The notes under the pieces: generated by a model
Databases searched by the model: none
What the model saw: the letters and a program-made list of their open reading frames with translations, nothing else
What the model was told of the DNA's origin: nothing
Assembly: GCF_964199755.1 (NCBI RefSeq)
Contig: NC_133898.1
Location: 131,984,553-132,048,552, forward strand
From: Larus michahellis
Lineage: Eukaryota > Chordata > Aves > Charadriiformes > Laridae
Length of the DNA: 64,000 nucleotides
Direction: 5' to 3'
Position numbers and translations under genes: made by a program
Shown: positions 1,151-32,554 of the stretch, in pieces
Layout of the letters: each line of letters starts with the position of its first letter
How positions within the stretch are numbered: the stretch's first letter is position 1

Positions 1151-1450
1151 ATGCGGCGGGCGCTGCTCACCCTCCTGCTGCTGCTCGCCCGCCCGCCGCC
1201 CGCCGCCGCCCGCCCCGCGCGCCCCGACGGCTCGGTCCCGGCGGCCGCGGGCGAGGAGCGGGGCCGCCCGCTCTGGCCGCCGCTGGCGCCGCCGCCCCCG
1301 GAGCCGTGGCGGGCGCGGAGGGACGAGCCGCCGCTCTCCATCGACCTCACCTTCCACCTCCTGCGGCACCTCCTGCTGCTCGCCCGCGCCCAGAGCCAGC
1401 GCGCCCGCGCCGACAGCAACCGCCTCATCCTCGACGCCGTGGGGCGCTGA
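1151..1450 (+). CDS. UCN: Urocortin prohormone (UCN)
   Basis: Urocortin is a secreted neuropeptide of the CRH family that acts on CRH receptors 1 and 2. The single coding exon gives 99 residues. There is a leucine-rich signal peptide (about residues 1-20), a very short proline/alanine-rich propeptide, and a furin-type RARR at 54-57. The predicted mature peptide covers 58-97, exactly 40 residues, the usual urocortin length, and contains the hallmark SIDLTFHLLR. Gly98 is the amide donor and Arg99 the last residue. The propeptide is GC-rich and shorter than the mammalian one. The start codon is the first ATG after the acceptor at 1131-1132. The adjacent TRIM54 and DNAJC5G support UCN rather than CRH or another urocortin. 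Confidence 0.95.
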   Translation: MRRALLTLLLLLARPPPAAARPARPDGSVPAAAGEERGRPLWPPLAPPPPEPWRARRDEPPLSIDLTFHLLRHLLLLARAQSQRARADSNRLILDAVGR

Positions 1451-5621: not shown

Positions 5622-6967
5622 TCAGTGCTGACCTGTGCGGGAAACTGGCCTCAGCACCGTGGGGACCACGGGACGGGGCAGACGGGGAGGGCCTGGGGGT
5701 CGCCGAGGTGTGACCACCCCACTCCCCCCACATCCGCATCCCCATCCCCATCCCTCCCCAGGAGGTGCCTCCTCCGCCCCACGGCCTGGCCCCGTCCCCA
5801 CCCCCTCAGTCCCAGCGAGGGTCTCACCATGGGGAGAACTCGCCGGTTTCTGCCTCGGCCCCACATCTGCAGGGGGAAAGCGAGTGACAAAACTGGAGGC
5901 AGGGATGCCCCGGCACGCTGCAGGACCTGCGGGTCACGGCGCAGCCACACGGACACAGTACTGGCCATGGCACAGCATGTCCCCCCCTCCACGGGCTCCG
6001 CTGTCCCCGACCGCCCCCGCAGCCCTGGGGCCACACGCCGCAGCCAGGCACGGTACAGCACGGCATGGCATGGCATGGCACATCATGGCACAGCACAGCA
6101 CATCATGGCATGGCATGGCATGGCACACATGGCACGGCACAGCACGGCATGGCCGGGACTCACCCTCCACAGCTTCGGGCCCCTCCAGGCTGTCCAGCCG
6201 GTCCTCGTCTGCCGCGGCTTCGCTGCCATCGCCGGGTCCGTCTGCCTCCTCCTCGCCCAGGGGCTCTGCAGGGCAGGGGACAGGTCAGCCAGGGACCCCC
6301 CTCCCGCGGGGGGGACATGACGGCCCTGGTGTGGGACGCAGCAGCCCACGAGCAGAGGCGGCACAGGGACCCCCCGCAGGGTCCCCGGGCGGCGCTGAGG
6401 GGCCGCACTTCCCCGTTCCTGCGCACGAGGGGACGCATCCCCATGCAGGGCACGAGGTGGGGCGGGGGGGCCTCTGCCCACCCGAGGGCTGGGCGCCCAA
6501 GGCAGTGCCATGCACCCCCCGGCCATGGCAGCGCTTGTCCCAGCGCCGGCACCTGTCTGGAACTCGATGGTCCTCAGCATCTCCGCCACATAGTCCACAT
6601 TGATGGAGAAGTGGTCCATGTTCTCGTAGCCGGGCTCCGGGCGGCTGCTCATCGACACCTTGGACATGTCCGTGATCCTGCAGGGCAGGCAGAGCCCCAG
6701 GAGCTGCCAGCGTCCCACACCCACGGGGCCCCCGCGCCCCCGGCCATGGCCCAGCAGGACCAGCCACAGCCGAGTCCCCCACCCTGCCCCTGCCCACCGT
6801 GTCCCCCACCCTCTGCCCCCCACCCTGCCCCTTTTCCCTGTGCCCCCAGCCCTGTCCCCTCCGGCCCCACTCACTTTTTCAGGAGCTCCTTGGAGTGCTG
6901 TGAAGGAAAGTGGGGGGGGGGGCTGTTAGTGACTCCCTGGAGCAATGGGACCCCCAGGAGCCAGATG

Positions 6968-7009
<42 letters not shown>

Positions 7010-8736
7010 CCCGGCCACAGCCACAGCCCAGCACATCCCCGAGGAAACTCCCAGAGCCTTTGCGGTGACCAGAGCCCCCCCCCAGCCCTGCAGGGCAGCC
7101 CCAGCCCCCTCAGAGGCCCCCCACGCCCCCCACCCGCACAGACCTGCAGGTACACGGCCATCTGCGGCTCCTCCATGGCCTGGATGGCCGACTCCACCAG
7201 CTTGGAGGAGGCCTCCAGGTGGTCGCCGTACTGGCGGATGAGGCCCCGCACGCGCTGCACCTTCTCCTCCTGCTCCCGCGCGATGCTCTGCAGCAGCTCC
7301 TTCTTCCGCTCCTCCAGGATGCCGTACAGCGAGTCGAAGCGCAGCCCCAGGTGCTGCTTCTGCCGCCGGCCGTTCTCCTGCGGGACCACCGGCCTCAGGG
7401 GCTGCCCCGGTCCCACCGTGTCCCCACCGCGGGCACGGCCCCAGGGACAAACACCCCCCACACACACCTCGATGGTGTGGCAGATCTCCTCCATCTGGGT
7501 GATGATGGCCTGGATGCGGTCGTTCCCCGCCACCAGCATGGCGATGCCATCGCTGAGCTCGCTCTGGGCGGGGGGTGGACAGGACGGGGCATGAGGGCCG
7601 GCTGGACGGGCAACCCCGGAGCCCCCTGCTGGCCCCACCATCCCCCCCTCCAGGGCGCCCACCTTCTGTCGCTGGTAGACGGCGGGCAGCGGGGCCACCT
7701 CGCAGTCCTTGTGCGCCCCGAAGACCTTGCAGAGGGAGCAGGTGGGCGCCTCGCAGCGCAGGCAGTAGATGTTGATCCGCTCGTCCTCGTGCTCCTCGCA
7801 CATGAGGTGCTGCTCGGCCTTGGCGTGCAGGGGCCTGCGGGCGGGGGGGGGGGGCCGGGCACCGCGGCCCACCGGTGGGCACCGGCCCCCAGAGACACCC
7901 CCAGGACCCCAAGGACGCCCCCCGAGTCCCGCGAGGGCCCCATTACCCCACACTCCGCGTCGTCTCCCACCGCCAGCCCTGCTCCTGCCTCCTCCCCGCC
8001 CCGCCGTGGGCTCCCCGTCACCCACGGGACTCGTCCCCCCCCCCCCACGCCCTGGGGTCCCCAGTGCCCCCGCGGGGTCCCCGCACCTGGCCGACTCCTG
8101 CTTGTAGATGTCGATGATGTTCTCCACCAGCAGGTTCCGCTGCAGCCCGTACACCCCGTGCCGGTCCAGCACCACCTCGTGGCGGCACGACGGGCACCGG
8201 AACCGGCCGCCCGACGGCACCGCGCTGGAGCCCCGCGACTGCCACAGCGGGTTGGAGGCCTGCGGGGGGCGGCGGGTCACGGCCGCGGCGCCCACGCAAT
8301 CCCGTCCCCTCCGGCTCCCGCCCCGGCACCCCCTCCCGGGCTCTGCCGCCGGCAGCGAGACCCCGCGGGCCCCGGCCCCTGCCGGCCGTGTGTCCCCCGT
8401 CCCCCGCGGGCACGGGCACGGGCACGGGCACGGCCCCCGCGACCGGGCAGCCCCCGCCGAGCCGGGAGCGGCCCCGAGCGCGGCCCCGCCGGGGGTCCCG
8501 ACGGCTCGTCCCGGTGCCGGTGCCGGATCCAGCCCCCCCCCGCCGTTGGGGGCCCGGTCGGGGCGCACCTGGAAGACGTCGTTGGCGCACTTGCGGCAGA
8601 GGTTGTGCTGGCAGGGCAGGATGACCACGGGCTTGGTGAACATCTCCAGGCAGATGGGGCAGATGAGCTGCTTCTCCAGGCTCTCCATGCTCCGCGCCTC
8701 CGCCAGCAGCGGCTTCAGCCCCACCGCGAAGTTCAT
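5622..8736 (-). CDS. TRIM54: TRIM54 / MuRF3, muscle RING-finger protein
   Basis: MuRF3 is a sarcomere- and microtubule-associated E3 ligase of striated muscle. Coding exons (minus strand): 8736-8569, 8259-8087, 7834-7663, 7563-7468, 7377-7144, 6897-6875, 6677-6553, 6265-6164, then a 3' part starting at 5866. All joins have GT/AG sites and keep phase. Domains in order: MuRF N-terminus; RING with C26-C29, C42-H44 and C47-C50 and a second cysteine pair in exon 2; the MuRF-specific linker; a B-box; a coiled coil (exons 4-5); a COS-box; and an acidic tail. The N-terminus (MNF.VG.KPLL) and the [12 protein letters not shown] segment are closer to TRIM54 than to TRIM63 or TRIM55. The 3' end is uncertain: reading straight through to the stop at 5622-5624 gives 445 residues, while splicing 5828 to 5632 gives 380, closer to the human length. 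Both end at the same stop. Confidence 0.93.
6056..6150. repeat. (ATGGC)n-type tandem repeat
   Basis: An imperfect array of atggc/acggc/acagc pentamers in the TRIM54 intron before the last coding exon. It produces histidine/threonine-rich plus-strand frames that are not genes. Confidence 0.85.
6968..7006. repeat. (CA)n microsatellite
   Basis: A pure CA run of about 19 units in TRIM54 intron 5, shortly upstream of the 23-nt exon at 6897-6875. Confidence 0.9.
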
Positions 8737-12233: not shown

Positions 12234-12394
12234 GTCGGCGGGAGGGAGAGCGGGAACGGCGGCACCGACCGCCCCGGGACGGGCCCTGCCCCGCGCCCGC
12301 CGCCGCTTCCGCCGCGCCCGCCCCGCTCTGCGCAGGCGCCGGGGCGGCACCGGCCCCCCGGCCCTTGCCCTTCCCCGCCGCACCGCCGGGACGC

Positions 12395-13090
12395 GGTGAC
12401 ACCCCCATCCCGCACGCCCGGTATGCGGCGACACCCCATCGCGCATCGGCGCAGGCGGTGACACCCCCACCGCACACCCCCGGCACAAGTGACACCCCCA
12501 GCACCCCTCCCGGTACGCGGTGACACCCCCACCACACAGCCCAGCACCCCCGGTGTGCAGTGACACCCCCCCACACACACGGTGACAGCCCCCCCCGTGA
12601 CACCCCCACTGCACACCCCCCCCAAGTGACACCCCCATCGCACCCACACACACACACGGTGACAGCCCCCCCCATGACACCCCCATTGCACACACACACA
12701 CACACACGGTGACAGCCCCCCCCGTGACACCCCCATTGCACCCACACACACACAGTGACAGCCCCCCCCGTGACACCCCCATTGCACACACCCCCCAAAT
12801 GACACCCCCATTGCACCCACACACACATAGTGACAGCCCCCCCCGTGACACCCCCATCACGCACACACCCTGCCAAGTGACACCCCCACCACACACCCCC
12901 ACACGCACAGCGACACCCCATCGCACACCCCCACACACAGTGACACCCCCATCGCACACACCCCCCAAGTGACACCCCCATCGCACCCCCACACACACGC
13001 AGTGACAGACCCCCCAACACACACAGTAACACCCCCATCGCACACCCCCCCCCCAGTGACACCCCCATCGCACCCCCGGCACACAGGACC
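12395..13090. repeat. Minisatellite upstream of DNAJC5G
   Basis: About 700 bp of tandem units of roughly 28-50 bp, each with a tgacacccccat core followed by a variable CA-rich piece and often gtgacagcccccccc. Unit length varies because of the CA runs. It fills the whole gap between the DNAJC5G promoter CpG island and the 3' end of the UCKL1-like gene. Long open frames on the minus strand across it (Gly/Val/Cys-rich) are repeat artefacts. Confidence 0.9.
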
Positions 13091-13153
13091 CCCCCCCAGC
13101 TGGTACCGTCCCTGTCCTGGCGCAGGCGGCAGGCGGGGGGGTCACGCTGCTCC

Positions 13154-14185: not shown

Positions 14186-17100
14186 TCAGCAGTCCATGCC
14201 GTCGCTCTCACACCAGGTGGAGGGGCCATCGGTGCCGAAGTATCTGTCCCCGAAGTTACCTGAGGGACGAGGGGACAGAGTGAGGCGATGGCAGCGCCTG
14301 CCCCACCACAATTCTCCCCCCCACACCAGGTGGCCGCGGGGCACCCACCGGGGGTCTGGGGATCCATGGGGCAGGGCCCCCCCCGCCCACCCTCACCGAT
14401 GCCCGGGATGATGTGGAACTCCTCATTGATCCGCTTGTCCACGGCGGTGGTGATGATGTGGACACGGGGGAAGGCGTAGGCCACGGAGTGCACCCCCATC
14501 TCTGCCATCAGCAGCGACAGCAGGAAGATCCTGTCCTCCTGCACGTCATGGTCCTGCGGCGACGCAGCACCCTGAGAGCCTGGCCGGAGGCAGGGGGGCC
14601 AGCACCTCCCCATGCCCCCCACCGCCCCGGCCACTCACCAGCAGCACCCGCACGGCCATCATGGCCGCGGCTCCGGTGGACACAGTGCTGTCCATGAGGA
14701 TGACGTAGTCCTCGCTGATCTCCTTGGGAAGGCGCAGGTAGTGGAGCTGGGGAGGGAAGGAGGGACGGTCACCACCCCGCGGTACCGGGGGGCTCCGGGG
14801 AAGGAGTGGGGGTCGCCACACCGCGGTGCCAGCAGGCTCAGCTGCTCACCTCGGGCTCCCCCGTGTCGTGGTTGGTCTGGATGAGGATCTTGCCCAGGCG
14901 GATGTCCTTGCAGACCGCGGTGAGGGCCTGCTCCATGGTCTCCCCTGCCCGCAGGATGGACACACCGGTGATCTGGGGAAGGGAGGAGAACATGTCTGCT
15001 GGGTTTGCAGCCGCCCCAGCAAGCTCCCGAGGCTCCTGCACTGCAGGAGAGGGGACAACTGCCCCCGAGCAGCTCGTCTGCGGAGGCACGGACCCTGGGG
15101 GCAGCAGGTTTTCCCAGCCCATGATGACCCAAGACAGGGCAGCCACGTGCTTGTGGGGAGAAAGGGGCCGGGAGAACGCCTCACCCTCTGCCTGTGGAAC
15201 CGCTTCCCTTCGTACATTGTCCCCTGCGGCGTCTCCACCGTGACCGACTGCAGAAAGGGGAGGAGAAGGGAGTGTGGGTGACGCTGGGCGCTGCGTGGCC
15301 CGGGGAGGGGGACACGTGGCTGTGGCCACACCAGAGAAGTGGCCACTCACCTTCAGCGGCAGGAAGGAGAGGGCATGTTCGATCAACAGCCTCATCAGGC
15401 GCTTGGAGTAGAAGATGAATTCGTCCCTGGTCGTGTCCTTGTTCCTGTTGAGGGAGGACCCATGTGTGAGACGAGCAGAGTCCCTGGAGCAAATGGGGCT
15501 CCGGAGGACGGAGCAGAGCACACCTGTGGGAGCCTGGAAGCTCTTGGGGAGGAGACGGTTACTACCCACCGCTATGCCAGGGCTTGCTGAAGACCTGGGG
15601 TGTTGTCTAGAAAGGACCACATGGTCAAGAACCCTGGAAGGGGGACACAAAGCCCGCAGCAGATCGTGCAGATGGGATGAAGTGAAACGACACCACGCAA
15701 CGCTGCTCCATGCTCTGGGACACAGGGGACAGTTCAGCGCTGGCTCTGCATGGTGGGCTAGCTGGGGCAGCGGAGTGAATAAAGCCAACAGCAAAAAGGA
15801 GGGATGAGCGGGCATACCACGAGCAGCTCACCGCAGACGTACACCCCGACCCTGAGCAGAGGTGCCCAAGAAGCGTTTGCAGCGGCGCAGCATTACTCGC
15901 TCCGAGCACGACCTCTAATGGCTGCTGAGTCTCTCCTGGCAGATTTGCAGGGCTGGAGATTTCTGACGTTAACTGCTGACCAGGTGGAAAGAGCCGGGAG
16001 CGAAACGGGGGCAGGAGCAGCAGAACCCCAGGCGGCAACTCAGGAGCAAGCGGCAAGTGTTTTGTACGGGGTCTGGCAGGGAGCCCACCCGGCACGGACC
16101 ACGGCACGGCAGCAGAGCCGGCGCCGGCAGCACCGCAGGAGGCCAGACCACGCCAGGGCCAGGAGCAGCTGGGCTACCCGGCACCGGCGATGGGACAAGG
16201 CCTGACACGCTCTCACCTCCCCTCCGTTCATGTCCCAACTCAGAGATAAACTGCCAGGAACCAGACTTTGAAACACCTGGTGTTATCTCACCACAACACC
16301 GAAGCGCTGAGGGCAGCAAGAAGTAAAATAAACAGAAAACGTAATAAAGCCACGGTGGGGTTGTAATTCACAGGGAACCTCCCCTGCTCCCTCAGGGCGG
16401 GTGAAGCCGACTGTATGCACAGGGAGAAAACCCCAGGGGCTGCCTTTTCTTATTGGGAGCGTTTTGTACCCCCAGCACACAAACTCCTCTATGAAACCCT
16501 GCGTTTCCTGCGACAGGCGTCCCCCCCAGCACAGCAACACGAGGGGGTACGTAACGACAGGCAGGGCTGTCCCTGTCCCACCCCGCTCCGAGGTGGGCAG
16601 AGCTCCTCCACCAGCGCTCGGCGTCAAGTACCTGAAGGCAAAGCACCTGCAGCAAGAGGCCGCTCGGCAGGAAAAGGAGGTTCTGAGATTTGCTCCTCCT
16701 TTAAAACGTGACCATAAAGAATCTGCTGATGTCCCGCTACACCCCTCGCAGCCCGTGGCTGCTTTCGGCACTGCTGTGGCTGCACCTGGAATACCGTGTC
16801 CAGTTTTGGGCCCCTCAGGCCAAGAAAGACCTTGAGGGGCTGGAGCGTGGCCAGAGAAGGGCAACGGAGCTGGTGAGGGGTCTGGAGCACAAGGCTGTAA
16901 TGTAAGTGCCATTTTACTGAAGAACCACCAAGAACAAGCTTCTGTCTCCCGTAACCGCGGCAGGCTGACACCGAGGGACTGTGGTTAACAAGACGTGGCT
17001 GAAATCTGTGTTCTCTTCTGCGGCCAGTGCCCAAAGCAGCGCAGCCCGCGTACAGCCCCGCTGTTTTCTGGAGAACGTGAGGAACAAAGGAACCCTGCAG

Positions 17101-20100
17101 ACATTTGCCAGTAGCCAGATGGAAGAGGTGGAGCTGGCAACAGTCCAGAAGAGGCAGAAGGATACTGAATATTTTTACTCTGTATTTTAGGACATCATCT
17201 GCCGCTTCTCACACATCTCACCACGATGACAGACAGTCAACGGAGCTCAGGAGAAGGATAAACACTCACTACTATCCCGAGATGTTTTTGCAGCCAGACC
17301 CGGGTAGCTGACGTCGGAGCTGACATCGGAGCGCCCCGCAGTGACCAGAGCACCCGACTAACGTGGACATTTCCAACAAGCCTGGGGAGAGCGGGGGACT
17401 CCCTGAGAAAGCTGGAAAATCAGTTCTTGTTGGGAAGAAGCAGGCGTGCTGCCTACAGCGTGGGCTGTCGGTACGTGCGCTCCCCCACGGGTGGGCTTCA
17501 CCCACGCGCCCACCCACGGCAGCTCCGGAAGCCTGAGCTCCAGGCGCACAAGCCCGGCAGCAGCCCTGCCTCCACGGGCCACCCGACAAGCCCCACAGTA
17601 GCTGTCGGCCCCGGGGCCGCTGTGCCAGGGGCAGGGGCAGCCGCCTGTCCCAGCCAGCCCTGACCCAGGTGGGACAGGCCCGTCGGTGCGGCTGCAGAGG
17701 CAGGTTCCTCCACAGCCTCCGAAAGGCGTCCCAGGGGTGGAGGAGCATCCTCGGTCCCTGCGCCACAGAATCCCAGACTGGCAGGGGCTGGAGGGGACCT
17801 CTGGAGATCATCCCGTCCAGCCCCCGGCCAGAGCAGGGTCACCCAGAGCAGGTGGCACAGGAACGCGTCCAGGCGGGGTTGGAATGTCTCCAGAGACGGA
17901 GACTCCCCCACCTCTCTGGGCAGCCTGTGCCAGGGCTCTGCCACCCTCACAGCAAAGAAGTTCCTCCTCGTGTTGAGATGGAATTTCCCGTGTTCCAGTT
18001 TGTGCCCGTTGCCCCTTGTCCTGTCCCCGGGCACCACTGAGAAGAGCCTGGCCCCATCCTCTTGCCCCCCGCCCTTTAGCTATTGCTGAGCATTGATGAG
18101 ATCCCTCTCAGCCTGCTCTGCTCCAGCTGAACAGCCCCAGGGCTCTCGGCCCTTCCTCAGCACAGAGATGCTCCATCTCTTGATCATCTCGGTAGCCCTT
18201 TGCTGTCCCCTCTCCAGCAGTTCCCTGTCCTTCTGGACCCGGGGAGCCCAGAACTGGCCCCAGTGCTCCAGCTGTGGCCTCCCCAGGGCAGAGCAGAGGG
18301 GGAGGATGACCTCCCTCCACCTGCTGGCCACGCTCTTTTGAATGCCCCCCCCAGGAGACCATTGGCTGCGTTGGCTACAAGGGCACATTGCTGGCTCATG
18401 GGCGACTTGGTGTCCCCCAGGACTCACAGGTCCCTCTCTGCAGGCCACAAAGGTCTGAGCACGACTCCCTTTTCATGCAAGGAGCGGGGTACGGCAGCGC
18501 TACGGCCAGTGGCTCCCAGGACCTCCATCTTCCCCGGCACCCTCAGCAGATGGCACCAGGGCCCTGACAGGGACCAGCGGGCACGAACAGGAGCAGCTGT
18601 AGCCAAAAGCCAGCCATCACGTTCAGGCCCAGGGAAACCTGAGCACGGACAGGTTTCGTGTCTGAACTACCTTCTCTGGCGCCGGCGACTTCCCAGCACG
18701 CAGGGAGCACCTCGCTGTGCCCTCACTGAAGCGCCAGCAGTGACATGCTTCTCAAGGGCAGCTCCAGCGCAGGACAACATGTTCTGCCAGGGCACAAAGT
18801 CCAAAGGCTCAACCCAGAGCAAACTTGCTAATAAGGCAGGTGACCCACGCCACCCACAGGCTGCACCGCTGGGGGCATCCTGGGGTCCCCTCCACGAGCG
18901 TCTTGTAAGTTGGAGAACGTGACCCGCACCCTTACTGCACTGTCCATCCTCAGCGTGGTCATGAATAAATTTATTCATCCACTCTAGTGCAGGACTGTTT
19001 TTCCCCCTCTCCACAGGAACAGAACAACCGCTTTGGAAGCCACTTCTCCCTGCAATGCCAAGCCTGAATTTGCCGTGACTATAGTCAGCGAGATGCTCAT
19101 CTGCTGCCACAACGCAATCCTCCGGGAGGGCCCTCAGAGACAGAAGGCTGGAGCACGGAAGAGCCTCCAGTGTTGGAGCAACAGGGAAGCAACATTGGCC
19201 AGCAGCAGCCTGGCACACCGAGATCAACAGGCTGCCCCTGAGGGAGCTGCTCTGGGAAAGGCAGGATGGAAATCCTGGTTCACAGCTCCCTGGCGCATCC
19301 ACACGCTCCAAAAGGCAACACCGGTGGGAGCACCCGCACGCCGGGAGGGCTGCCAGGGCAGAGAGGGGCTGACAGCACCGCGGCAGACGGAACGAAGGTG
19401 AGAGATCAGCTTTGCCAAGACACTGTAATTTCACAGAAGGAGGCGTGGGAAGCTTGGCAAAAGGTGTGCATTCGATCCCCTGCCAGTCCGGATGCCTCCA
19501 GGGAGCCCAGGAGAGCATCAGCAGGCAGGGAGCAGTGTCTCTGGAGCAGAGGGAAGCCCAGAGCATCATGCATGAGGACCATTAACAGTCCCACACCATG
19601 CTGAAGTCACGCAGAAGTAAGTGAGCGCTGCCAAGTATCACCTACAGGCACCAGAAATACAAGCTGCCTTGCTGTCACCGAATCCAGAACTTTTTACCAG
19701 AAGAATTCCTCAGCTTGGAGATCTTAGTAACAGCACTGCCTCAGCTTGCCTTGCTTCCTTGGGCTGCAGCAGGATTTGAGGGGGCGGCTGACAGGCCAAG
19801 TCAACGCCCCTCATAAATGTGGTATTTTTCCTCTACCATCTGGAAGGGGCAAAGTCCGCCCTCCCGCAGCCCCGCCGCTCGTGCCGCCCGGCTCCGAGCA
19901 CACCATCGCGACGGGACCTGGAGACCAGCAGCGCTGACGGACTCCAACCACCACCTGCCCGGGCCTGATCCCCTCCCTCCCCGCAGCAGCTGAACAAACT
20001 CCTAAGTCTAAGCAGATTAAGGTTATTAGACGCTTGTGGCATAAAGGCGGAAGCACAACAGGCTGTTCCCAGCACGGCAAAAGGACACAGACTTCAAGGA

Positions 20101-23100
20101 GGAAGAGGGGAAACGCAGCTACAGACAAGCGAGGATTCAGCGCCTGCCACGGTGACGTCCCCTTGGGACAACGGCTGCTCAAACCTTCTGCCTTGGCTAG
20201 TGCCTTGGCCCTCGGCACTGCTCACGGACCAGCCTGGGCTCATGTTGGTCCAAGAGCAGCACACGCCAGCATCAGGCCACAGAAGGTCCGTGCCAGAGCC
20301 TGTGAGCAGGAAGGCCAGAGACAGCACAAAGACTGGCATTCTTCTCTCCTTGCATAACCCCGGAAAAGGGAACGCTGCTCCTGCACAAGCAAACAACATT
20401 CAGCCTCCGGGGGTGCTCCTCCCCCAGGATCTGCCTTCCACCTGGCCTCCCCATGCTGCAGGGACAGGGCCATATCTGCTCTGAAATTCCATAGCCGGAC
20501 CTGAACTCAGAACTACTGAAGTCCACAGCCTAGGGGTGAGGTATGTGGGCTTCAGACACTGCGCTGGTCTCTGCCCAGTGCACACAAGGTGCCACATCAC
20601 CTGGCGAGGCACATCCCCTGGCTTTTCACTGCCATGGACTGCCCTCGGAGCCCAACTTCAACGGGGAGGAGTCACCGGAGGAGCCTGGAGAAGGAACACC
20701 TTGCTTCCTACAAAGAGGTGCACAGCCTGCACGTGGTCACGAGGTTACATTCCCCAACCCAACACATGGAGAGAGCTGGTGGGAGTGCTCACGGAGACAC
20801 TTTCCATCATTTACCAGCAGTGCTGACTAACTCGGGAGGTCCCCGTTGACTGAAGGCGAGTAAATGTGACACTCATCTACAAGAAGGGCTGCAAGATCCA
20901 GAGAATTACAGGCCTGTCAGTCTGACCTCGGTGCCGAGGAAGGTTATGGAGCAGATCATCTTGAGTGCGATTAGAGGACAAGCAGGCAATCAGGCCCCGT
21001 CAGCGTGGGTTTACAAAAGGCAGGTCCTGCCTGACTAACCTGATCTTCTTCTGTGACAAGGTGATCTGCTTAGTGGACAAGGGACAGGCTGTGGATGTTG
21101 TCTACCTAGACTTCAGTAAAGCCTTTGGCACAGTTTCCCACAGCATTCTCCTGGAGAAACTGGCTGCCCATGGCTTGGATGGGCGTACCCTTCGCTGGGT
21201 GAAAAGCTGTCTGGCCGGCCCGGCCCAGAGAGCGGTGGCGAATGGAGTTCAGTCCAGTTGGTGGCCGGTCACAGCGGTGTTCCCCAGGGCTCGGTGTCGG
21301 GGCCAGTTCTGTTTAATGTCTTTATCGACGACCTGGAGGAGGGGATCGGGTGCACCCTCAGTCAGTTTGCAGAGGACACCAAGTTGGGCGGGAGTGTCGG
21401 TCTGCTGGAGGGTAGGAAGCCTCTACGGAGGGATCTGGACAGGCTGGATGGATGGCCCAGGGGCAATGGTGTGAGGTTCAACAAGGCCAAGTGCCGGGTC
21501 CTGCCCTTGGGTCACGCCAACCCCACGGACGCTCCAGGCTGGGCAGAGTGGCTGGAGAGCTGCCCAATGGATGAGGACCTGGGGGTGTTGGTCGACAGCG
21601 GCTGAGTATGAGCCAGCAGTGTGCCCAGGTGGCCAAGGAGGCCACCAGCATCCTGGCCTGTGTCAGCACGAGTGTGGCCAGCAGGAGTGGGGCAGTGACC
21701 GTCCCCCTGGACTGGGCACTGGGGAGGCCCCACCTCGAGGGCTGTGTCCAGGTTTGGGCCCCTCACGCCAAGAAAGACCTTGAGGGGCTGGAGCGTGTCC
21801 AGAGAAGGGCAACGGAGCTGGTGAGGGGTCTGGAGCACAAGTCTGGTGAGGAGCGGCTGAGGGAGCTGGGGGTGTTCAGCCTGGAGAAGAGGGGGCTGAG
21901 GGGAGACCTTCTCGCTCTCTACAGCTCCCTGAAAGGAGGGGGTAGCCAGGGGGGGTCGGGCTCTTCTCCCAAGGAACAGGCCATGGCACAAGAGGAAACG
22001 GCCTCAAGTTGCGCCAGGGGAGTTTAGGATGGATATTGGGAACAATTTCTTCCTGGAAAGGGTTGTGAAGCATTGGAAGAGGTTGCCCAGGGCAGTGGTG
22101 GAGTCACCATCCCTGGAGGGATTGAAAAGCCGGGCAGACGCGGTGCTGAGGGCCATGGGGTAGTGGTGGCCTTGGCAGTGCTGGGTTAATGGTTGGACTC
22201 GATGATCTGAAAGGTCTCTTCCCACCAAAACAATTCTATGACTCTGTGGGTGCTGGCAGCCACCCAGAGTGCGAGAAGGCGCAGGAGAAGAGCCCTGCTG
22301 AGCTCAGCATCCCCTTTCTGTTTTACAACCCAGTGACAGAAACGCACGCAGAGTCTGCAGCTTCTGCAACTGCAGTAACAATGAACATCTTAGCAGTCCC
22401 ATGGGATTCAGCACTTGACCCTACGCTAGAACTACTGTCACATAGAAAAAAAGGATCATCGGCGGGGAATTAAAAGATCAAGCAAGCGACAAAGCCATGG
22501 AAGCAGCAGCCTGGGTCCTTCTGTACACTGTCTATAAAACCACGGGGCAGCAAGAGCACCTCATCCCGTGCCACCAGCTGCCGGGTCTGTGCTCCAGCTA
22601 GGAAACAGCTAACCAGTCTCCTCTCATCGTAAGAAAAGCCTGCCTGGGGCTCAAAAGTCACTCCAGGGTAGACCTGACAAGGTCTCATCGCCAAAAAAGC
22701 ATCTGTATGCCGGAGCCAGCTCCGTTCAGCAGTTCTGCTCCAAGAAAATACCTACGCCCGAAGCCCTACAGGCAGAGGAGGGAAAACTCACACCAGGTTT
22801 TGTACTGTGATCCCACAGAACAGTCCTTCTGTGCACACAGAAGACATCCCAGAGGAGGCAGGGACCTACCTGATGATGGTGTGCATGCCCCGCACCTGCG
22901 GCGTGTTCTCCAGGACGCTCAGCGTCTTCGGCAGGGGCTGCCCTTGGTGGGCAGAGGCCAGAGCTGCCCTGCAACAAGGAAGCAGCCATCAGAGCCACAC
23001 AGCACACGCACAGAGCCACCACGCTGGATCCCCTTGGAGTGGGACGCGGCCCCCAAACGAAGGCTCCAAGAGAACCCACCACACAGGCTGGACACCAGAA

Positions 23101-26100
23101 AGTGCTTGGCCTTCCCACCCCGGTCCCTTGGAAAGCGCAGGTACAAGATCCCTGTCCAGGACGCTTCTCCCATAGAAGGAAGCAGTGCGGGGCAACCCAA
23201 CGCTCAGCGCAGGAGCCATGCTCCAGAAAGGGACAGGAGCAGCGCAGGGAGCCCATCACCCAAATCAGGCATAGCTGCCGTGGGACAGGTCACGCAGGAG
23301 CCTGCGGCCACAGCGAGAGAGCCCCCAAGAATCACAGCATGGTTTGGGTTGGAAGGGACCTTGAAGATCATCTTGTTCCAACTCCCTACCAGGGCAGGCA
23401 CCTCGGCAGTCAAGGAAGAGCAGCTGCACTCAGACATCCCAGCAAAGCTCCGTCCAGCGGGGACAGAGAAGAGACAGGACTCAGGGAAGAGCAGGTGCTG
23501 GCAGCTCTGGACCCCCAGCCCAGCAACGGGCCCCTCCGCAGCTGGCAGCATCCCCACCTACCTGACAGTGATCTCGCGCTGGGTGGCAGAGCAGGGTCAT
23601 CCAGCGAGGAGAAAGGGGAAAGAAAGGACATCGTCACTGCACCAGCCAGGCACATCCACCCGGTCCAGCTCCCACCCCAGAGCAGGAAAAACACCGCTGG
23701 GCACAGCCAGGGGGCAAGGGTGGGCTGCCGGGGTGCAGCCAGGGGCAAGCAAGGTGGGGACAGCTGAGACCACCAGGAGCCGAGTGGGACTGAGGGGGAC
23801 AGCAGGGGAACAAGGCCAGGCCAGACCGCAAGCGTCCAGCGTCACTGCCAGGGCAGGCTCTGTGCCCAGACCCGTCCCCATCTCCCCAGCCCTTGTGTCA
23901 CAGCGCAGTCTGCCCCGAGAGCTGCACAAAGACCTTTTGTACAGAGAGAGGGGACACCGGGCGCCTCTGGGCGCTCCAGGAGCACAGGGCTGTGAGCAGC
24001 CGCCTCCTCCCCTCTGTGTGCCGTCCTCCTCCTCCTCCTCGCCCGCGCTAGCAGCAATCAACCAGCCCACACCTCACCTTCTCCAGCTGGCTGTGCACGT
24101 GCTGCACAATGAGGTCCAGGGCCACAAAGTTCTCCCCACCTGACAGGAGAGCGGAGAAGCCGGGTCAGGCGCGGGCTGACCCAAGCCTGTCCCAGGACAC
24201 CCGCTCCCGACGCTTGGGTCGCGTCTGGCACACAGCGCAGTCTCACCCCTGGGCACCACGATGTCGGCGACCTGCACGGTGGGCTCGATGTACTGCTCGA
24301 AGGCGGGCTTCACGAACTTGTTGTATTGCTTGATGACACCCACGATGTCGCGCCCACGTTCCATGATGTCGCGTTGCAGCCGCCGCACCAGACGGATGTC
24401 AGAGTCCGTGTCCACAAACACTTTCATGTCCAGGAGCTGGAAAACTGGGAGGGGTGAGCACCCCCTATGCAGCCCCCCGTCAGACCTGCCTCGTTCCCCT
24501 TGCCCCAGCGATGGCATCCAGCGCTGCTGCCTCCCCTGAAGCCTCTGACACGAGGTGCTCTGCAGCCAGCGGTGGGTGAGCTCTCCCTCCGCAGCTCCCA
24601 GCCATCGCTGTCCCACCACCGCACACCTCCTCCCACCACACGCGCCAAGACAGGCCACCAGCCGCATCAGGCAGCGATACCTTCAGCAACTCCTTGTTCG
24701 CAAAAGCCAGTATGCCTTCGAACACGATGACGTTGGCCCCGTACACCGTTTTCTGTGGGCAGACAAGAGCTGTTGTCACCCCGCCCCACTCCTGCATGCT
24801 GCAGCAATGCCAACACCCAGCACAGAGAGTGCCTCAGCCCCCGACCCATGCTGGGCTCTCATCACCCACGGGTGAGACGCCCCATAACCATCCTAAATCA
24901 CCCAACCTTCACAGGCCCTTTTTCTCACCCCTGCACTGACCCAAACCCCAGAGCCGTGCCCCAGAACCCCAAACCCTGTCCAAACGTCCTCCCCCAGCCC
25001 CTGTCCTCCCTGCACACTCCAAACCCCAGTCTCTCCCTGAACTCTGCACTGGCCCCCGTGTCCACATCCATCTCCGCGTCTCTGTGCTCCCTCCCTGCCC
25101 CTACACCCCCAATCCCCCCAGAGTGACTCTCCCACACCTGATGGCCCCCAGCCCCAACACCCCTTTGCCCTCCGAGGCCCCACAGCCCCCACACTCCGTT
25201 CTCCTGCCCCACAGGCATTCCCCCCGTCCTGGGGGCTCTCCCTGCAGCACCCAGCCGCCGTCCCAGCTCCCCTGCAGCACGCACCCACTCGCGGCGGCGG
25301 CTGTGCGTCGTGAAGTCGTAGACCGGCACCTTCACGCTCTTGCCCTTCTTGAGCTTGCGGAGGACGCTGACAAGCAGCTCGAAGTCAAAGGCATCGGGGT
25401 GGTCGAAGTTGTAGTCGCTGCGGGCCGCCAGCGCCTGCTGCCCCTCGTCCAGCACCTGAGGGCACCGTCACCGCTCAGTGCCACGCCAGACCCCGCGGAG
25501 CCGCAGGCACCTCACCGCCCAGTGCCACGCCAGACCCCCCAGCCCTCACCTTGTAGAAGGAGTCCATAGAGAGCAGCACGACCCAGGGCACGTCCAGTGC
25601 CTCGATGATCCGCGTCGCCACCGTCGTCTTGCCCGAGGCGCTGCCGCCGCACAGGCCTGCGGGCGAGCGGGGCCCCGGCTCCGTCATTGTCCCGGCTCCG
25701 TCATTCCCCTGGCGCCAGCTCCATCCCGATCGCAGACCCGGGCCCGATCCCGGCCCCAGTCCCAGCCCCGCACCACCCCTTCCCCAACCCCAGTCCCGAT
25801 CCCAGCCGAGGCCCCGTCCCCGATCCCATCCTTTCCCCGGTCCCGATCCCAACCCTGATTCCGTTCTTTCCCCGGCCCCGGCCCCGGTCCCGGTCCCATC
25901 CCTTCCACATCCCGGCCCCGGTCCCGGTGCCGATCCCCGCCCGGCCCGGCCCGGCCCCGCCGCTCACCGATGACGAAGGCCTCGTCCACGGGCGCGCCGG
26001 TCTCGCTGTACCAGGGCGGCCGCCCGGCCGTGTAGATGGTCCGCTTGCTGGTGCGCAGCAGCGGCGGCTCGGGCTGGCACTGGCTGGCGGTCCGCCGCCG

Positions 26101-26217
26101 CGGGGACGGGGCCAGCGGCAGCCGGCTCAGCAGCGAGCCCAGCGGGCCGGGCCCTGGCCCGGGGCCGCGCTCGGGGCCCGCCGCGCCCCAGCGCTCCTCG
26201 GCGCCCGCCGCCGCCAT
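14186..26217 (-). CDS. UCKL1-like: Uridine-cytidine kinase-like protein (UCKL1 paralog)
   Basis: UCKL1 proteins join a uridine/cytidine kinase domain to a uracil phosphoribosyltransferase-like domain and belong to pyrimidine salvage. Fourteen exons: 26217-25968, 25656-25550, 25455-25285, 24752-24681, 24436-24247, 24139-24078, 23578-23562, 22968-22870, 15444-15351, 15247-15185, 14972-14850, 14746-14639, 14553-14397, 14259-14186. They total 1587 nt and encode 528 residues with every phase matching, close to human UCKL1. The Walker A loop GGSASGKTT is at 87-95, followed by the kinase DSFYK and [10 protein letters not shown] motifs. The PRPP-loop equivalent after D435 reads STVSTG (436-441). The C-terminus ends GDRYFGTD then [13 protein letters not shown], unlike the acidic human tail. 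Linkage to DNAJC5G, TRIM54 and SLC30A3 argues for a paralog of UCKL1 (human 20q13.33), not UCKL1 itself. Function as an active kinase is inferred from intact motifs. Confidence 0.9.
16735..16905 (+). mobile_element. CR1 LINE fragment in UCKL1-like intron 8
   Basis: The segment contains the CR1 block ...tttgggcccctcaggccaagaaag... and the downstream ggagctggtgaggggtctggag block. It is closely related to the longer copies at 20841-22249 and 56856-57530 but truncated at both ends. Confidence 0.85.
17762..18440 (-). mobile_element. CR1 LINE 3' end
   Basis: A 5'-truncated CR1 in minus orientation whose 3' end (cacagaatccc on the plus strand) lies at about 17764. It is very similar along its length to the plus-strand copy at 62790-63488, including the segment tgatcatctcggtagccc. 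Both therefore belong to one relatively young subfamily. Confidence 0.92.
18440..20840. other. UCKL1-like intron 8 DNA, nothing recognised
   Basis: This 2.4-kb intronic segment lies between two CR1 copies. I see no exon, RNA gene or repeat that I can name in it; composition is less GC-extreme than its surroundings. Confidence 0.5.
20841..22249 (+). mobile_element. CR1 LINE with reverse-transcriptase remnant
   Basis: A 5'-truncated CR1. Its first half encodes the reverse transcriptase core in pieces: [15 protein letters not shown] (box A with the first catalytic Asp), then after a frame change [11 protein letters not shown] (the ..DD box). Its second half carries the 3' UTR, ending in attctatgactctgtggg. 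The open frame is broken by at least one frameshift between these boxes, near 21240-21280, so it is inactive. It lies in UCKL1-like intron 8, antisense to that gene. Confidence 0.93.
23330..23410 (-). mobile_element. Short CR1 3' fragment
   Basis: The plus-strand read gaatcacagcatggtttgggttggaagggacc is the reverse complement of the CR1 3' terminus. Only about 80 bp remain, in UCKL1-like intron 7. Confidence 0.85.
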
Positions 26218-28570: not shown

Positions 28571-31500
28571 ATGGAGCCCCCGAGCGGCACCGAGAGCGCC
28601 CGCCTGGTCAGCCCGAGGGGCGGCCGCGCCGACGGCAGCCTGCGCCTCAAGAGGTACCGCCGGCACCCCCGGCATTTCCACCGCCCCGGCACCGGCACCT
28701 CCATCCCCGGCACCGGCACCTCCATCACCCCCGGCACCTCCATCCCCGGCACCGGCACCTCCATCGCCCCGGCACCGGCACCTCCATCCCCGGCACCTCC
28801 ATCACCCCAGCACCTCCGGCGCCCCATCATCTCCATCAGCGGCACCCCAGCACCTCCATCACCCCCACCCCAGCACCTCCATCACCCCCGGCACCTCCAT
28901 CCCCGGCACCGGCACCTCCATCACCCCCGGCACCTCCATCACCCCCGGCACCTCCATCCCCGGCACCGGCAGCTCTATCACCCTAGCACCAGCACCTCCA
29001 TCCCCGGCACCGGGACCTCCGTCACCCCCGGTACCTCCATTCCCGGCACCGGCACCTCCATCGCCCCGGCACCGGCACCTCCATCCCCGGCACCTCCATC
29101 ACCCCGGCACCTCCGGCGCCCCATCATCTCCATCAGCGGCACCCCAGCACCTCTATCACCCCCACCCCAGCACCTCCATCACCCCCAGCACCTCAGCCAC
29201 CAGCACCCCGGCACCTCCGGCATCCTCAGTACCTCCATCACCCCCGGCACCAACACCTCCATCACCGGCACCCCCAGCACCCTCATCTCCCCGGTACCCC
29301 CGGCACCAGCACCTCCATCACCAGTACCCCGGCACCCCCGTCGCCCCGGCACTGCCACCCCCGGCACCCCACCACCCCACGCCAGCGCCACTTCGCGCTG
29401 CCCCCGGAACCCCCCAGCACCGCCACCTCCATCATCCCCCGCATCTGCAGCCTTCGATCCCCCGCACCCGCAGCGCCGGCACTGGGTCCCCCATCACCCC
29501 CGGCATGTCCATCGCCCCCCACCGCCCCCAGCTCCCCCGGCCTCCCCGGCACCCGCACCCCCCGTCAGCGCCACCTCCCGTCCCCCGGGACCCGCAAGCC
29601 CCCGACACGTCCAGCACTGCCCAGCTCCCACCGCCCCGACATGGGCATCCCCCGGCACGTCCATCCCGCCGCGGCCCCCGCGCCTTCATCCATCCGGCAC
29701 GGGCATCAGCACCTCCGCGGACCCCGAGCCAGCCCCGACCCTCCGTGCACCGGCACCCACCCCCCGGCACCGGCACCCACCCCCTCCCCGGGGCCGGCGC
29801 CTCCATCCCAGCGGAACCAGCCCCCCCGCGCCGTGCGCCAGCCCCGCTCCCCCCTCGGTGCCCGTCCGGCAGTTACCGGCGCCCAAACGCCACCCCCCCG
29901 CACCGGTACCGTGCATCCATCACCCACCCGCACCGGTACCGTTCACCCGTCGCCCCCCCCGCACCGGCACGCTGTCCGTCCATCCGTCCCCTCCCGCACC
30001 GGTGCCCCCTGCACCAGCGCCCTGAGCCCCCGCCCGCCCCCCCCCACTCCCCACCTCTCCCGTCCCCGCAACGGCCGCGGACGCGACACCTCGGTCCCAC
30101 CGGCCCCCACGCCGCCCCCCGCGGTCCCGGGACTACCCGTCCCAGCGGGGGAGTTCGGCTGCCGCGGGCCCGGCCCCCCCGTACCCTGCCGGTGCCCCGG
30201 CTTTGTTACCGCCGCCGGCGGGGCGGACCCCCGGGACCAGCCCGGGCACCCCCGCGGGCCAGACTGCGGCTACCGGGAGCCCCGGGGGTCCCGGGCAGAG
30301 GCAGCAGGAGCCGGGGCGGCCGGCAGTGACCCCCGCCCCTAGTCTGTTTGCAGGCTCCCAGGACATCCCGGCACCACCGCCCCCCCTGGCTCCGGCTCCC
30401 CACTGCCACTGCAGCCCCCGAGCCCCCAGCCCCGGCCCAGGGAGGCTCCAGGCCCGCCGGCAGCTGAGCGTCGCCTGCACCGTCTGCTGCCTCTTCATGG
30501 TCGGGGAGGTGATAGGTAACAGGGGGACGGGGATGGGGACGGGGGGCTGGCGGGGCGCGCGGTGCCAGCTGCCCTACACCCGCAGGTGGGTACCTGGCGC
30601 ACAGCCTGGCCATCATGACGGACGCAGCCCACCTGCTGACGGACGTGGGCAGCATGTCCGTCAGCCTCTTCTCCCTCTGGGTCTCCACCCGCCCGCCCAC
30701 CAAGACCATGAGCTTTGGCTGGCACCGCTCAGGTGAGCTGGGGGGACACACAGGTGGGTGGGCCATGTGTGTCCCCAGGCACTCACAGCCCCCCTCCCGC
30801 AGAGACGCTGGGTGCGCTGGCCTCCGTCCTCTCCATCTGGGTGGTGACCGGGGCTCTTGTCTACCTGGCGGCCGCCCGCATCGTCAGCAACGACTATGAG
30901 ATTGAGGCGCGAGCCATGCTGGCCACCTCCGCCAGCGCCGTCGGCGTCAACCTGATGTACGTCCTGCACAGGGCTGTGCGTCCCCGCATCCCCCCACACA
31001 CCCCCGGCCTGAGCCTCCCCTCCCGTGCCCCTGCCCCACATGTGCCCCCGGTGCCCCAAGGCTCCCAGGTCACCTTCTGTCCCTGTGCCCCCAGCTCTCA
31101 TGTCCCCAAGCGCTGACTCCTCCTATTCCCTGTCCCCAGTGCGCTCCCGGCTTCCAGCCCATGCACGTACACCCCCTATCTCTACTCCTCTCTACACCCA
31201 CTCTGTAGAGCCAGGGCTCTACATCCCCTGCCCCCATGCCCAGCCTGAGCCCTGGCACAAGCCCAAATCCCTGTTCTGGCCCCATGCGTGCCCCCAAGCG
31301 CGCCTGCCCATGCCCCCTCTGCCCAGGCGCCGCTGACGGGTGCAGGTCCAGGGGTGCCACCGAGGCCCCTGCACCCTGCCCGGCGCAGCGCTGAGCCAGC
31401 CCTGCTCTCCCCAGCATGGCCTACATCCTGCACCAGTCCCCCGCTGGCCACGGCCACGGCACAGGGGGCTACGAGCCCCTGGAGAGCACCAGGGGGTGCC

Positions 31501-32554
31501 TGCCCAGCCGTGCCCCCCTGCCCGGCAGCACCAGCGTCCGTGCCGCCTTCATCCACGTGGTGGGTGACCTGCTGCAGAGCGTCGGCGTCCTCGTGGCTGC
31601 CACCATCATCTACTTCAAGGTGCCCAGCCTGGACCCTCCTCCGCCACCCAGGGGAACGACTCCCTTGGCCCCACACAGGGTGCTGTGGGGTGGGCGCTGG
31701 GCTCTGGCACCCCCCTGCCTCGGTGCCCAGCTCGGCTCTGCCGCCCCCAGCCCCACGCACCCCCTGCTCTCTGCAGCCCCAGTGCAAGATTGCAGACCCC
31801 ATCAGCACCCTCTTCTTCTCCATCTTCGTCCTCGGCTCCACCTTCACCATCCTCAAGGACGTCTTCAGAGTCCTCATGGAAGGTTTGCAGCAGGCGAGGA
31901 GGGTGCGGGGTCACGGGTGCAGGGGGCTAGTGGGGGCGCAGGAGCTCCTGGGGGCAGCTCACGCCTCTTGGCCCCCACCCAGCCCCCTCCTCTGTCCTTC
32001 CCTTGTTTCCCTTGAGCCCCCCCAGCCTCTCCATCCTCTCCAGCGTGGCGGGGCCTCCCCCTGGAGCCACTGGTCCCCGGGTCACAGCCTGGGGGAACAC
32101 CCACCTCCGGCTGCTCCCACCACCAGCCCTGACCCTGGTGGGGCCGGGGGTGTCTGTCGCCCCCCGTGACCAGGCGTTGCTGGCAGGGGCGCCGCGGGGC
32201 GTTGCATTCGACGCAGTGAAGGAGGTGCTGCTGGGGGTGAGCGGGGTGAAGGGCACCCACGACCTGCACCTCTGGGCGCTGACGCTGAGCCACCACGCCG
32301 TGTCGGTGCACGTGGCTGTCGGTGAGTGCCCCGGATGGCGGCTCCTGCAGGAATGGGGGGGACGCATAGACACACCGGGGCTGAGCCACGCTGCCCTGCC
32401 CTCCCCAGACGCCAGTGCCGACGCCGAGACGGTGCTGCGGGAAGCCACCATCCAGCTGCGGCGCAGGTTCGGCTTTGCCTGGTGCACGGTGCAGGTGGAG
32501 CGGTACCGGGAGGAGGCGGCAGCCTGCCAGCACTGCCAGGACCCCCGCGCCTGA
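28571..32554 (+). CDS. SLC30A3: SLC30A3 / ZnT3, vesicular zinc transporter
   Basis: ZnT3 loads zinc into synaptic vesicles by Zn/H exchange. Eight coding exons: 28571-28653, 30343-30515, 30586-30732, 30803-30956, 31415-31619, 31777-31882, 32187-32321, 32409-32554, giving 382 residues. The acceptor at 30341-30342 was chosen because it yields KSLF, as in human, and keeps phase. The fold is a cation-diffusion facilitator with six membrane segments. The two HxxxD zinc sites are H101/D105 in TM2 and H233/D237 in TM5. The TM4-5 loop has a reduced histidine stretch (GHGHG, 197-201). The C-terminal cytoplasmic domain contains the conserved HDLHLWAL segment. Within the ZnT2/3/4/8 group, synteny with DNAJC5G and GTF3C2 identifies ZnT3. 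It is transcribed away from UCKL1-like and converges on GTF3C2. Confidence 0.93.
28660..29580. repeat. Minisatellite in SLC30A3 intron 1
   Basis: About 900 bp of 12-15-bp units built on ccccggcacctccat. A higher-order duplication is visible: the block beginning gccccggcaccgg at 28766 recurs at 29063, about 297 bp later, with few differences over more than 100 bp. It starts seven bases after the exon 1 donor. Long plus-strand open frames through it (Pro/Ala/Ser/Thr-rich) are repeat products. Confidence 0.93.

What the first reader, a model, noticed from the sequence alone, without database searches (positions are those of the whole stretch)
14186..26217. A second UCKL1-type gene beside DNAJC5G, probably an ohnolog lost from the human interval
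Fourteen exons close in frame to a 528-residue kinase-UPRT-like protein with intact Walker A and PRPP-loop equivalents. In human, UCKL1 sits next to DNAJC5 on 20q13.33, while the TRIM54-DNAJC5G-SLC30A3 block on 2p23 has, to my knowledge, no UCKL gene. Here a UCKL1-like gene lies exactly between DNAJC5G and SLC30A3. The parallel pairing DNAJC5-UCKL1 and DNAJC5G-UCKL1-like suggests one ancestral pair duplicated in vertebrate genome doubling and the second UCKL copy later lost in mammals. The diverged tail ([13 protein letters not shown]) also separates it from UCKL1.
Basis: partly seen in the sequence, partly recalled or inferred. Interest (0 to 1): 0.8.

Follow-up and report, generated by a model that had tools for sequence, protein, structure and literature searches.

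The report
Bird keeps second UCKL1 gene copy
This bird carries two old copies of the nucleotide-recycling gene UCKL1, one near each of two duplicated DNAJC5-type genes; sharks, fishes and reptiles also have the copy in this window, while mammals appear to have lost it, so studies of 'UCKL1' in non-mammals need to say which copy they mean.

Summary
In detail: 14 minus-strand exons (26217 to 14186) close to 528 residues with PRK and UPRTase domains, between DNAJC5G and SLC30A3. The same genome has a second UCKL gene on contig C16, 92.1% identical to human UCKL1 and 26 kb from DNAJC5. Over the core the window gene is 81.4% identical to that copy but 89.0% to its white shark counterpart; all 558 A-B pairs compared are at most 83.5% identical, all pairs within a clade at least 88.1%. 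An amniote-level origin is rejected (p-AU 0.023); the shark branch is unresolved. Zebrafish has a uckl1 in the same mpv17/trim54/dnajc5ga interval (PMC3711038), and the block belongs to a published 1R/2R paralogon (PMC9353778). No mammal is among the 119 named best hits. Best reading: an ohnolog, UCKL1-B, kept in sauropsids, amphibians and fishes and lost in mammals. Databases give both copies the same name. Genome-duplication origin and complete loss in mammals are inferred. An ordinary enzyme family with an unrecognised old paralogue.

The parts
25968..26217 (-). exon 1 of the UCKL1-type gene (UCKL1-B), start codon at 26217
   Evidence: donor gtgagc
25550..25656 (-). exon 2, P-loop GGSASGKTT
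   Evidence: 107 nt, same length as in the C16 paralogue
25285..25455 (-). exon 3
   Evidence: 171 nt, same length in the C16 paralogue
24681..24752 (-). exon 4
   Evidence: 72 nt, same length in the C16 paralogue
24247..24436 (-). exon 5, [13 protein letters not shown] segment
   Evidence: PRK match in the genome scan
24078..24139 (-). exon 6
   Evidence: 62 nt, same length in the C16 paralogue
23562..23578 (-). exon 7, 17-nt microexon
   Evidence: a 17-nt microexon is also found in the C16 paralogue
22870..22968 (-). exon 8
15351..15444 (-). exon 9, in the UPRTase part
15185..15247 (-). exon 10
14850..14972 (-). exon 11 ([14 protein letters not shown] where displayed UPRTs have IQRD/YRD)
14639..14746 (-). 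exon 12 ([15 protein letters not shown]-loop equivalent)
14397..14553 (-). exon 13
14186..14259 (-). exon 14, NFGDRYFGT segment and tail [13 protein letters not shown], stop codon
11314..12221 (-). DNAJC5G, three matched stretches (11314-11466, about 11552-11770, 12129-12221)
   Evidence: DnaJ domain
6545..8736 (-). TRIM54
   Evidence: RING and B-box
1322..1441 (+). UCN (mature peptide)
   Evidence: CRF family
30401..32545 (+). SLC30A3
   Evidence: Cation_efflux

Best explanation
The gene is an intact second vertebrate UCKL1 (here UCKL1-B), an old paralogue of UCKL1 (UCKL1-A). An ancestral DNAJC5-UCKL1 pair was duplicated with its chromosomal block, most likely in the vertebrate genome doublings. 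One daughter block carries DNAJC5 and UCKL1-A (bird C16, human 20q13; the crh2 paralogon). The other carries UCN-TRIM54-DNAJC5G-UCKL1-B-SLC30A3 (this window; human 2p23, where the UCKL copy is gone). UCKL1-B is kept in sharks, fishes, amphibians and sauropsids and was lost on the mammal line. Mechanism (inferred from the family and from conserved residues): the kinase half phosphorylates uridine or cytidine with ATP/GTP, or assembles with UCK2. The UPRT-like half lacks the Arg-Asp pair kept by the solved UPRTs displayed, so it more likely binds a ligand or helps assembly than makes UMP from uracil. Shown: gene, two loci, two clades, synteny in this genome. Inferred: genome-duplication origin, loss rather than non-sampling in all mammals, biochemical role. 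Human positions are recalled.
For: Intact 14-exon model. In exon-by-exon scans of the same genome two places match both domain families, C3 (this window) and C16; the other matches are to one family each, UPRTase on C13, PRK on C12 and C19. The C16 copy is 92.1% identical to human UCKL1 against 78.6% for the window gene, and lies 26,171 bases from DNAJC5. Twelve internal exon lengths are identical in the two genes. Tree of 51 rows: A (18) and B (31) are separated by one branch, 99/97, in 100% of 200 bootstrap trees. Core identities: A-A min 88.7% (153 pairs), B-B min 88.1% (465), A-B max 83.5% (558). 31 conserved columns separate A from shark plus bony B; 0 group A with only one of the two. 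Amniote-level duplication: p-AU 0.023. Zebrafish LG20 interval with mpv17, trim54, dnajc5ga and uckl1 (PMC3711038). Paralogon (PMC9353778). 0 of 119 named rows among the best 120 hits are mammals. Four species appear with A and with B: Podarcis muralis, Erythrolamprus reginae, Ficedula albicollis, Serinus canaria.
Against: The root is not firmly placed. With distant composite outgroups, B as a clade has support of only 64/25, and putting sharks outside A + bony B is not rejected (p-AU 0.334). The tree program warned that the closeness of A to the outgroup may be a long-branch effect. At 5 of the 11 diagnostic columns where the outgroup has one of the two states it matches B, and at 6 it matches A. 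UCKL1-A was seen only in amniotes here, because lists stop at 120 rows; A in fishes rests on one passage naming uckl1 on the crh2 paralogon (PMC9353778). Gene orientation differs between the two DNAJC5/UCKL pairs. No expression or enzyme data.
Confidence: 0.87

Rival explanations
1. The window gene is simply the bird's only UCKL1, moved to a new place.
For: Databases name it uridine-cytidine kinase-like 1.
Against: A second, more human-like UCKL1 (92.1%) lies 26 kb from DNAJC5 on C16 in the same genome.
Confidence: 0.01
2. A recent (bird, sauropsid or amniote) segmental duplication or retrocopy of UCKL1.
For: In my hit lists both copies occur together only in amniotes.
Against: The gene has introns, and exons 2-13 have the same lengths in both copies. 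B relatives are in sharks, fishes and amphibians. A + amniote B rejected, p-AU 0.023. Bird B is 89.0% identical to white shark B but 81.4% to bird A.
Confidence: 0.03
3. An ancient duplication, but of this gene (or gene pair) alone, or of a block after sharks split off, not of the whole genome.
For: The shark branch is not resolved (p-AU 0.334). The two DNAJC5/UCKL pairs differ in orientation.
Against: The dnajc5/dnajc5g, trim54/55/101 and crh1/crh2/ucn1 families are duplicated together in a published 1R/2R paralogon (PMC9353778). No column groups A with bony B against sharks (0).
Confidence: 0.1

Closest known systems
UCKL1 (uridine-cytidine kinase-like 1, human 20q13.33)
   Same: PRK + UPRTase architecture; the bird orthologue has the same 12 internal exon lengths; same kinase residues and same loss of the UPRT Arg-Asp pair
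   Different: 78.6% identical to the window gene; its bird orthologue is on another contig with other neighbours; 31 diagnostic columns; different tail. The window gene is not its orthologue
Database entries named 'uridine-cytidine kinase-like 1' in birds, reptiles, amphibians, fishes and sharks (P0001-P0120)
   Same: Relatives of the window gene, 78.. to 99% identical; 30 of the 120 were placed with it in the tree. Listed identities are 83-99%
   Different: They carry the same name as UCKL1-A in the same species, so the paralogy is hidden
Zebrafish uckl1 of the LG20 transparent/mpv17 interval (PMC3711038)
   Same: Listed with mpv17, trim54, dnajc5ga, uts1 and slc30a2, a block like this window's
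   Different: Sequence not compared here; in the parts I saw the paper treats it only as a positional candidate
UCK1 / UCK2 and single-domain UPRT
   Same: Each resembles one half
   Different: No fusion; the UCKL proteins compared lack the UPRT Arg-Asp pair

Membership tests
UCKL1 family | N-terminal PRK/uridine kinase domain fused to C-terminal UPRTase domain | tested here: met
   82-269 and 311-514
UCKL1 family | P-loop and nucleoside-site residues of UCK2 | tested here: met
   13 positions checked: 12 identical, S34 to T, which human UCKL1 shares (residue roles recalled)
Active uracil phosphoribosyltransferase | Arg-Asp pair before the PRPP loop (IQRD/YRD) | tested here: not met
   IQTN in window gene, C16 copy, human and chimaera B
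UCKL1-A orthologue | Clusters with human UCKL1 | tested here: not met
   99/97 branch separates it
2R ohnolog pair | Paralogue in a paralogous block of the same genome | tested here: met
   C16 UCKL1 with DNAJC5 and C3 UCKL with DNAJC5G; only this one neighbour pair was compared between the blocks here
2R ohnolog pair | Duplication older than jawed vertebrates | tested here: inconclusive
   Older than bony vertebrates; shark branch unresolved
2R ohnolog pair | Both copies present in sharks and fishes in the two blocks | not tested
   B found; A only through a passage of PMC9353778
Pseudogene | Broken frame or splice sites | tested here: not met

The most novel reading that the evidence does not exclude
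UCKL1-A and UCKL1-B have been kept side by side since before the shark/bony-fish split because they divided or changed work: B acquired its own conserved hood region ([12 protein letters not shown]) and acidic aromatic tail (APSDWYESDEGMDY), giving a distinct nucleotide-sensing or scaffolding enzyme. Mammals run pyrimidine salvage without it.
Probability: 0.25. Interest if true: 0.6.

Novelty: new member of a known kind. Interest (0 to 1): 0.42.

Why it matters
Two UCKL genes with the same database name exist in non-mammals, so transfers of function from human UCKL1 can hit the wrong gene. A concrete case: UCKL1 is reported as one of four markers of the chick organizer stem zone (PMC11519809). 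The passages I saw do not say which copy was probed; the primers are in its table S2, which I did not read. (B is in the hit list for two galliform birds, Phasianus and Coturnix; A was seen in other birds, and chicken itself was not checked.) The pair also adds a marker to the CRH/DNAJC5/TRIM paralogon and gives a natural comparison: animals with and without UCKL1-B.

Tried and rejected
Rejected: single relocated UCKL1; retrocopy; amniote-specific duplication; pseudogene (see rivals and membership test). Led nowhere: the first 50 kb around C16 UCKL1-A held no DNAJC5 or TPD52L2 match; DNAJC5 was just beyond and TPD52L2 stayed unfound in 70 kb. A query from human UCKL1 returned only mammals among the named rows. 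A composite query aimed at non-mammalian UCKL1-A gave 20 sauropsid rows of 120, 11 of which went into the tree; the other 100 rows are mammals or unnamed, so no fish, shark or amphibian UCKL1-A was obtained. No invertebrate or lamprey UCKL came up in the lists. CAD gave one weak match (42% over 33 residues, E 0.009, at 42502) and SLC5A6 and GTF3C2 none with recalled pieces. P0044 (unnamed source) was left out of the tree. That tree used 30 of the 120 hits and 17 rows, plus the two bird genes and two composite outgroups. The consensus comparison used 25 of the 120 hits and 10 of the 120. A first composite query was tested locally but not sent. No careful tree without outgroups was built. A whole-genome search with the window protein got no answer and was not repeated. 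A first attempt to hand in the corrected report lacked fields and was not accepted.

Full report
What is there. The minus strand from 26217 to 14186 holds 14 exons that splice to a 528-residue open frame; all 13 introns are gt..ag. Pfam finds PRK (82-269, E 4.9e-59) and UPRTase (311-514, E 7.4e-79). The nearest database protein is 99% identical over the full length (Porphyrio hochstetteri). The window lies on contig C3 of a 1.41-Gb genome at 131,984,553-132,048,552; the gene is about 359 kb from the contig end.

Neighbours. tblastn with recalled human proteins and Pfam on matched exons give UCN (1322-1441 +), TRIM54 (6545-8736 -), DNAJC5G (11314-12221 -), the finding, then SLC30A3 (30401-32545 +), with MPV17 to the left of the window. 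This is the human 2p23 block (human order recalled) with one extra gene.

A second copy in the same genome. A genome-wide scan with the UPRTase family gives seven matches in three places: the window gene (3), a second multi-exon locus on C16 (3), and one exon on C13. The C13 place aligns only with the UPRT half of human UCKL1 (10 kb examined), so it is apparently a single-domain UPRT gene. The PRK family scan gives the same two UCKL loci plus one match each on C12 and C19, presumably UCK1 and UCK2. The C16 gene was modelled at 4,594,359-4,608,452 (+), without its N-terminal coding exon. It is 469/509 = 92.1% identical to human UCKL1; the window gene is 388/486 = 79.8% identical to it and 385/490 = 78.6% to human. 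The lengths of exons 2 to 13 are identical in the two bird genes, including a 17-base microexon. DNAJC5 lies on C16 at 4,634,623-4,639,969 (-), 26 kb away. A third family member is on C2 (about 131.44-131.53 Mb), presumably DNAJC5B; the UPRTase scan gave nothing on C2. In a dairy goat paper, UCKL1 and DNAJC5 fall in overlapping 50-kb windows of one chromosome (PMC9852865, passages).

Which clade. I call human-type UCKL1 'A' and the window type 'B'. Of the best 120 hits of the window protein, 119 carry an organism name: birds, crocodile, turtles, lizards, snakes, amphibians, coelacanth, ray-finned fishes, sharks and chimaera, with no mammal (3517 hits passed the threshold, so lower-scoring mammals are certainly in the unlisted part). 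The named rows of the human query are all mammals. A composite query gave 20 sauropsid rows, the other 100 being mammals (marsupials included) or unnamed. Podarcis muralis, Erythrolamprus reginae, Ficedula albicollis and Serinus canaria appear with both, and both of each were in the tree. In the last three the listed contigs differ in length, so the two genes are on different contigs. In birds the listed contigs are mostly large for B (for example 127.9 and 123.6 Mb). For A they are often small (14.8-17.3 Mb in four species), matching C3 and C16 here, but 80-82 Mb in the listed eagles and buzzard. The tree of 51 rows separates 18 A from 31 B by one branch, support 99/97. Over the core (human positions 97-532), A-A identity is at least 88.7% (153 pairs), B-B at least 88.1% (465), A-B at most 83.5% (558). 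The bird B protein is 89.0% identical to white shark B but 81.4% to the A protein of the same bird.

How old. In the tree, the 27 bony-vertebrate B proteins form a group apart from A, sharks and outgroup (97/84). Forcing A together with amniote B costs 16.5 log-likelihood units, p-AU 0.023. Of 371 columns conserved within A, within shark B and within bony B, 340 are the same in all three, 31 separate A from both B groups, and none groups A with only one of them. At these 31 columns the outgroup matches A in 6 and B in 5, neither in 14, and has no letter in 6. The 6 are changes shared by shark and bony B but not by A. They favour a split before jawed vertebrates, but the tree with these distant composite outgroups does not settle it: B alone as a clade 64/25; sharks outside A + bony B p-AU 0.334. 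The branches to the outgroup are very long, and the program warned that A and the outgroup may be drawn together falsely.

Synteny from the literature. In zebrafish, primers for candidates of the transparent interval on linkage group 20 cover slc30a2, uckl1, mpv17, uts1, trim54 and dnajc5ga (PMC3711038, passages and section 17). If that uckl1 is B, which I could not check by sequence, the gene was already in this block in the ancestor shared with ray-finned fishes. PMC9353778 (passages) finds dnajc5/dnajc5g, trim54/55/101 and others around crh1, crh2 and ucn1 in reedfish, in agreement with 1R and 2R, and uses uckl1 as a marker of the crh2 paralogon only. It does not discuss a second uckl1 in the passages I saw. 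The searches UCKL1+ohnolog, UCKL1+SLC30A3, uckl1a/uckl1b, 'uridine-cytidine kinase-like 1'+paralog, DNAJC5+UCKL1 and UCKL1+genome duplication found no paper that their listings show to be about this pair. A 2025 paper counts three mammalian UCK family members, UCK1, UCK2 and UCKL1 (PMC12745349, passage), which fits the loss.

What it does. At the 13 UCK2 positions checked (P-loop, catalytic Asp, His117, Tyr112, the arginines; roles recalled) the window gene has 12 identical residues and Thr for Ser34, as in human UCKL1. In the UPRT half the PRPP-loop segment and the NFGDRYFGT segment are present. But the Arg-Asp pair found in the five displayed UPRT alignments (IQRD or YRD) is Thr-Asn in both bird copies, human and chimaera B. 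I infer uridine/cytidine kinase activity or a partner role for UCK2, with a UPRT-like half used for ligand binding or assembly. For UCKL1 a complex with UCK2 acting as a scaffold, in which kinase-dead mutants stayed active, has been reported (PMC12745349, abstract and passages). The two clades differ most in the N-terminus and the tail, and visibly in the hood region before [11 protein letters not shown]. The sharks and fishes examined have APSDWYESDEGMDY or close variants; most birds GPSxWCESDxMDC (cuckoo differs); sauropsid and marsupial A have APPxWSD-type tails; the four placentals examined lack the Trp.

Judgement. What is shown: an intact second UCKL gene, two loci in one genome, two clades older than bony vertebrates, parallel DNAJC5 linkage. 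What is inferred: whole-genome duplication, complete loss in mammals (monotremes not seen), and function. It is an ordinary enzyme family with a hidden old paralogue, useful for naming and for comparative work rather than a new kind of system.

Noticed in passing
window 20965-21474 (+), inside intron 8: Reverse transcriptase fragment (RVT_1, E 2.8e-9), antisense to the gene; probably a CR1-type LINE remnant (the name CR1 is recalled, not tested).
   Followed up: partly
window 16767-16897 and 21715-21845: Two 131-base direct copies, 89% alike, both inside the 7.4-kb intron 8.
   Followed up: no
window about 12100-13150: Repetitive, low-complexity reading frames beside DNAJC5G exon 1 (seen in the ORF list; no repeat search was run there).
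   Followed up: no
PMC11519809: UCKL1 is a marker of the chick organizer stem zone; the main-text passages seen do not state which of two copies was probed.
   Followed up: partly
C16:4594359-4608452 versus C16:4634623-4639969: On C16 UCKL1-A and DNAJC5 are convergent, while in the window UCKL1-B and DNAJC5G are on the same strand, so the orientation of one gene changed.
   Followed up: no
C-terminal tails: The four placental UCKL1 tails examined lack the Trp (AVPDGSD or TVPDGSD) that the sauropsids and two marsupials examined have (APPDWSD or APPNWSD).
   Followed up: no
P0025: A barn swallow database protein combines a DnaJ domain with this UCKL protein, possibly a gene-prediction fusion of DNAJC5G and UCKL1-B.
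   Followed up: no
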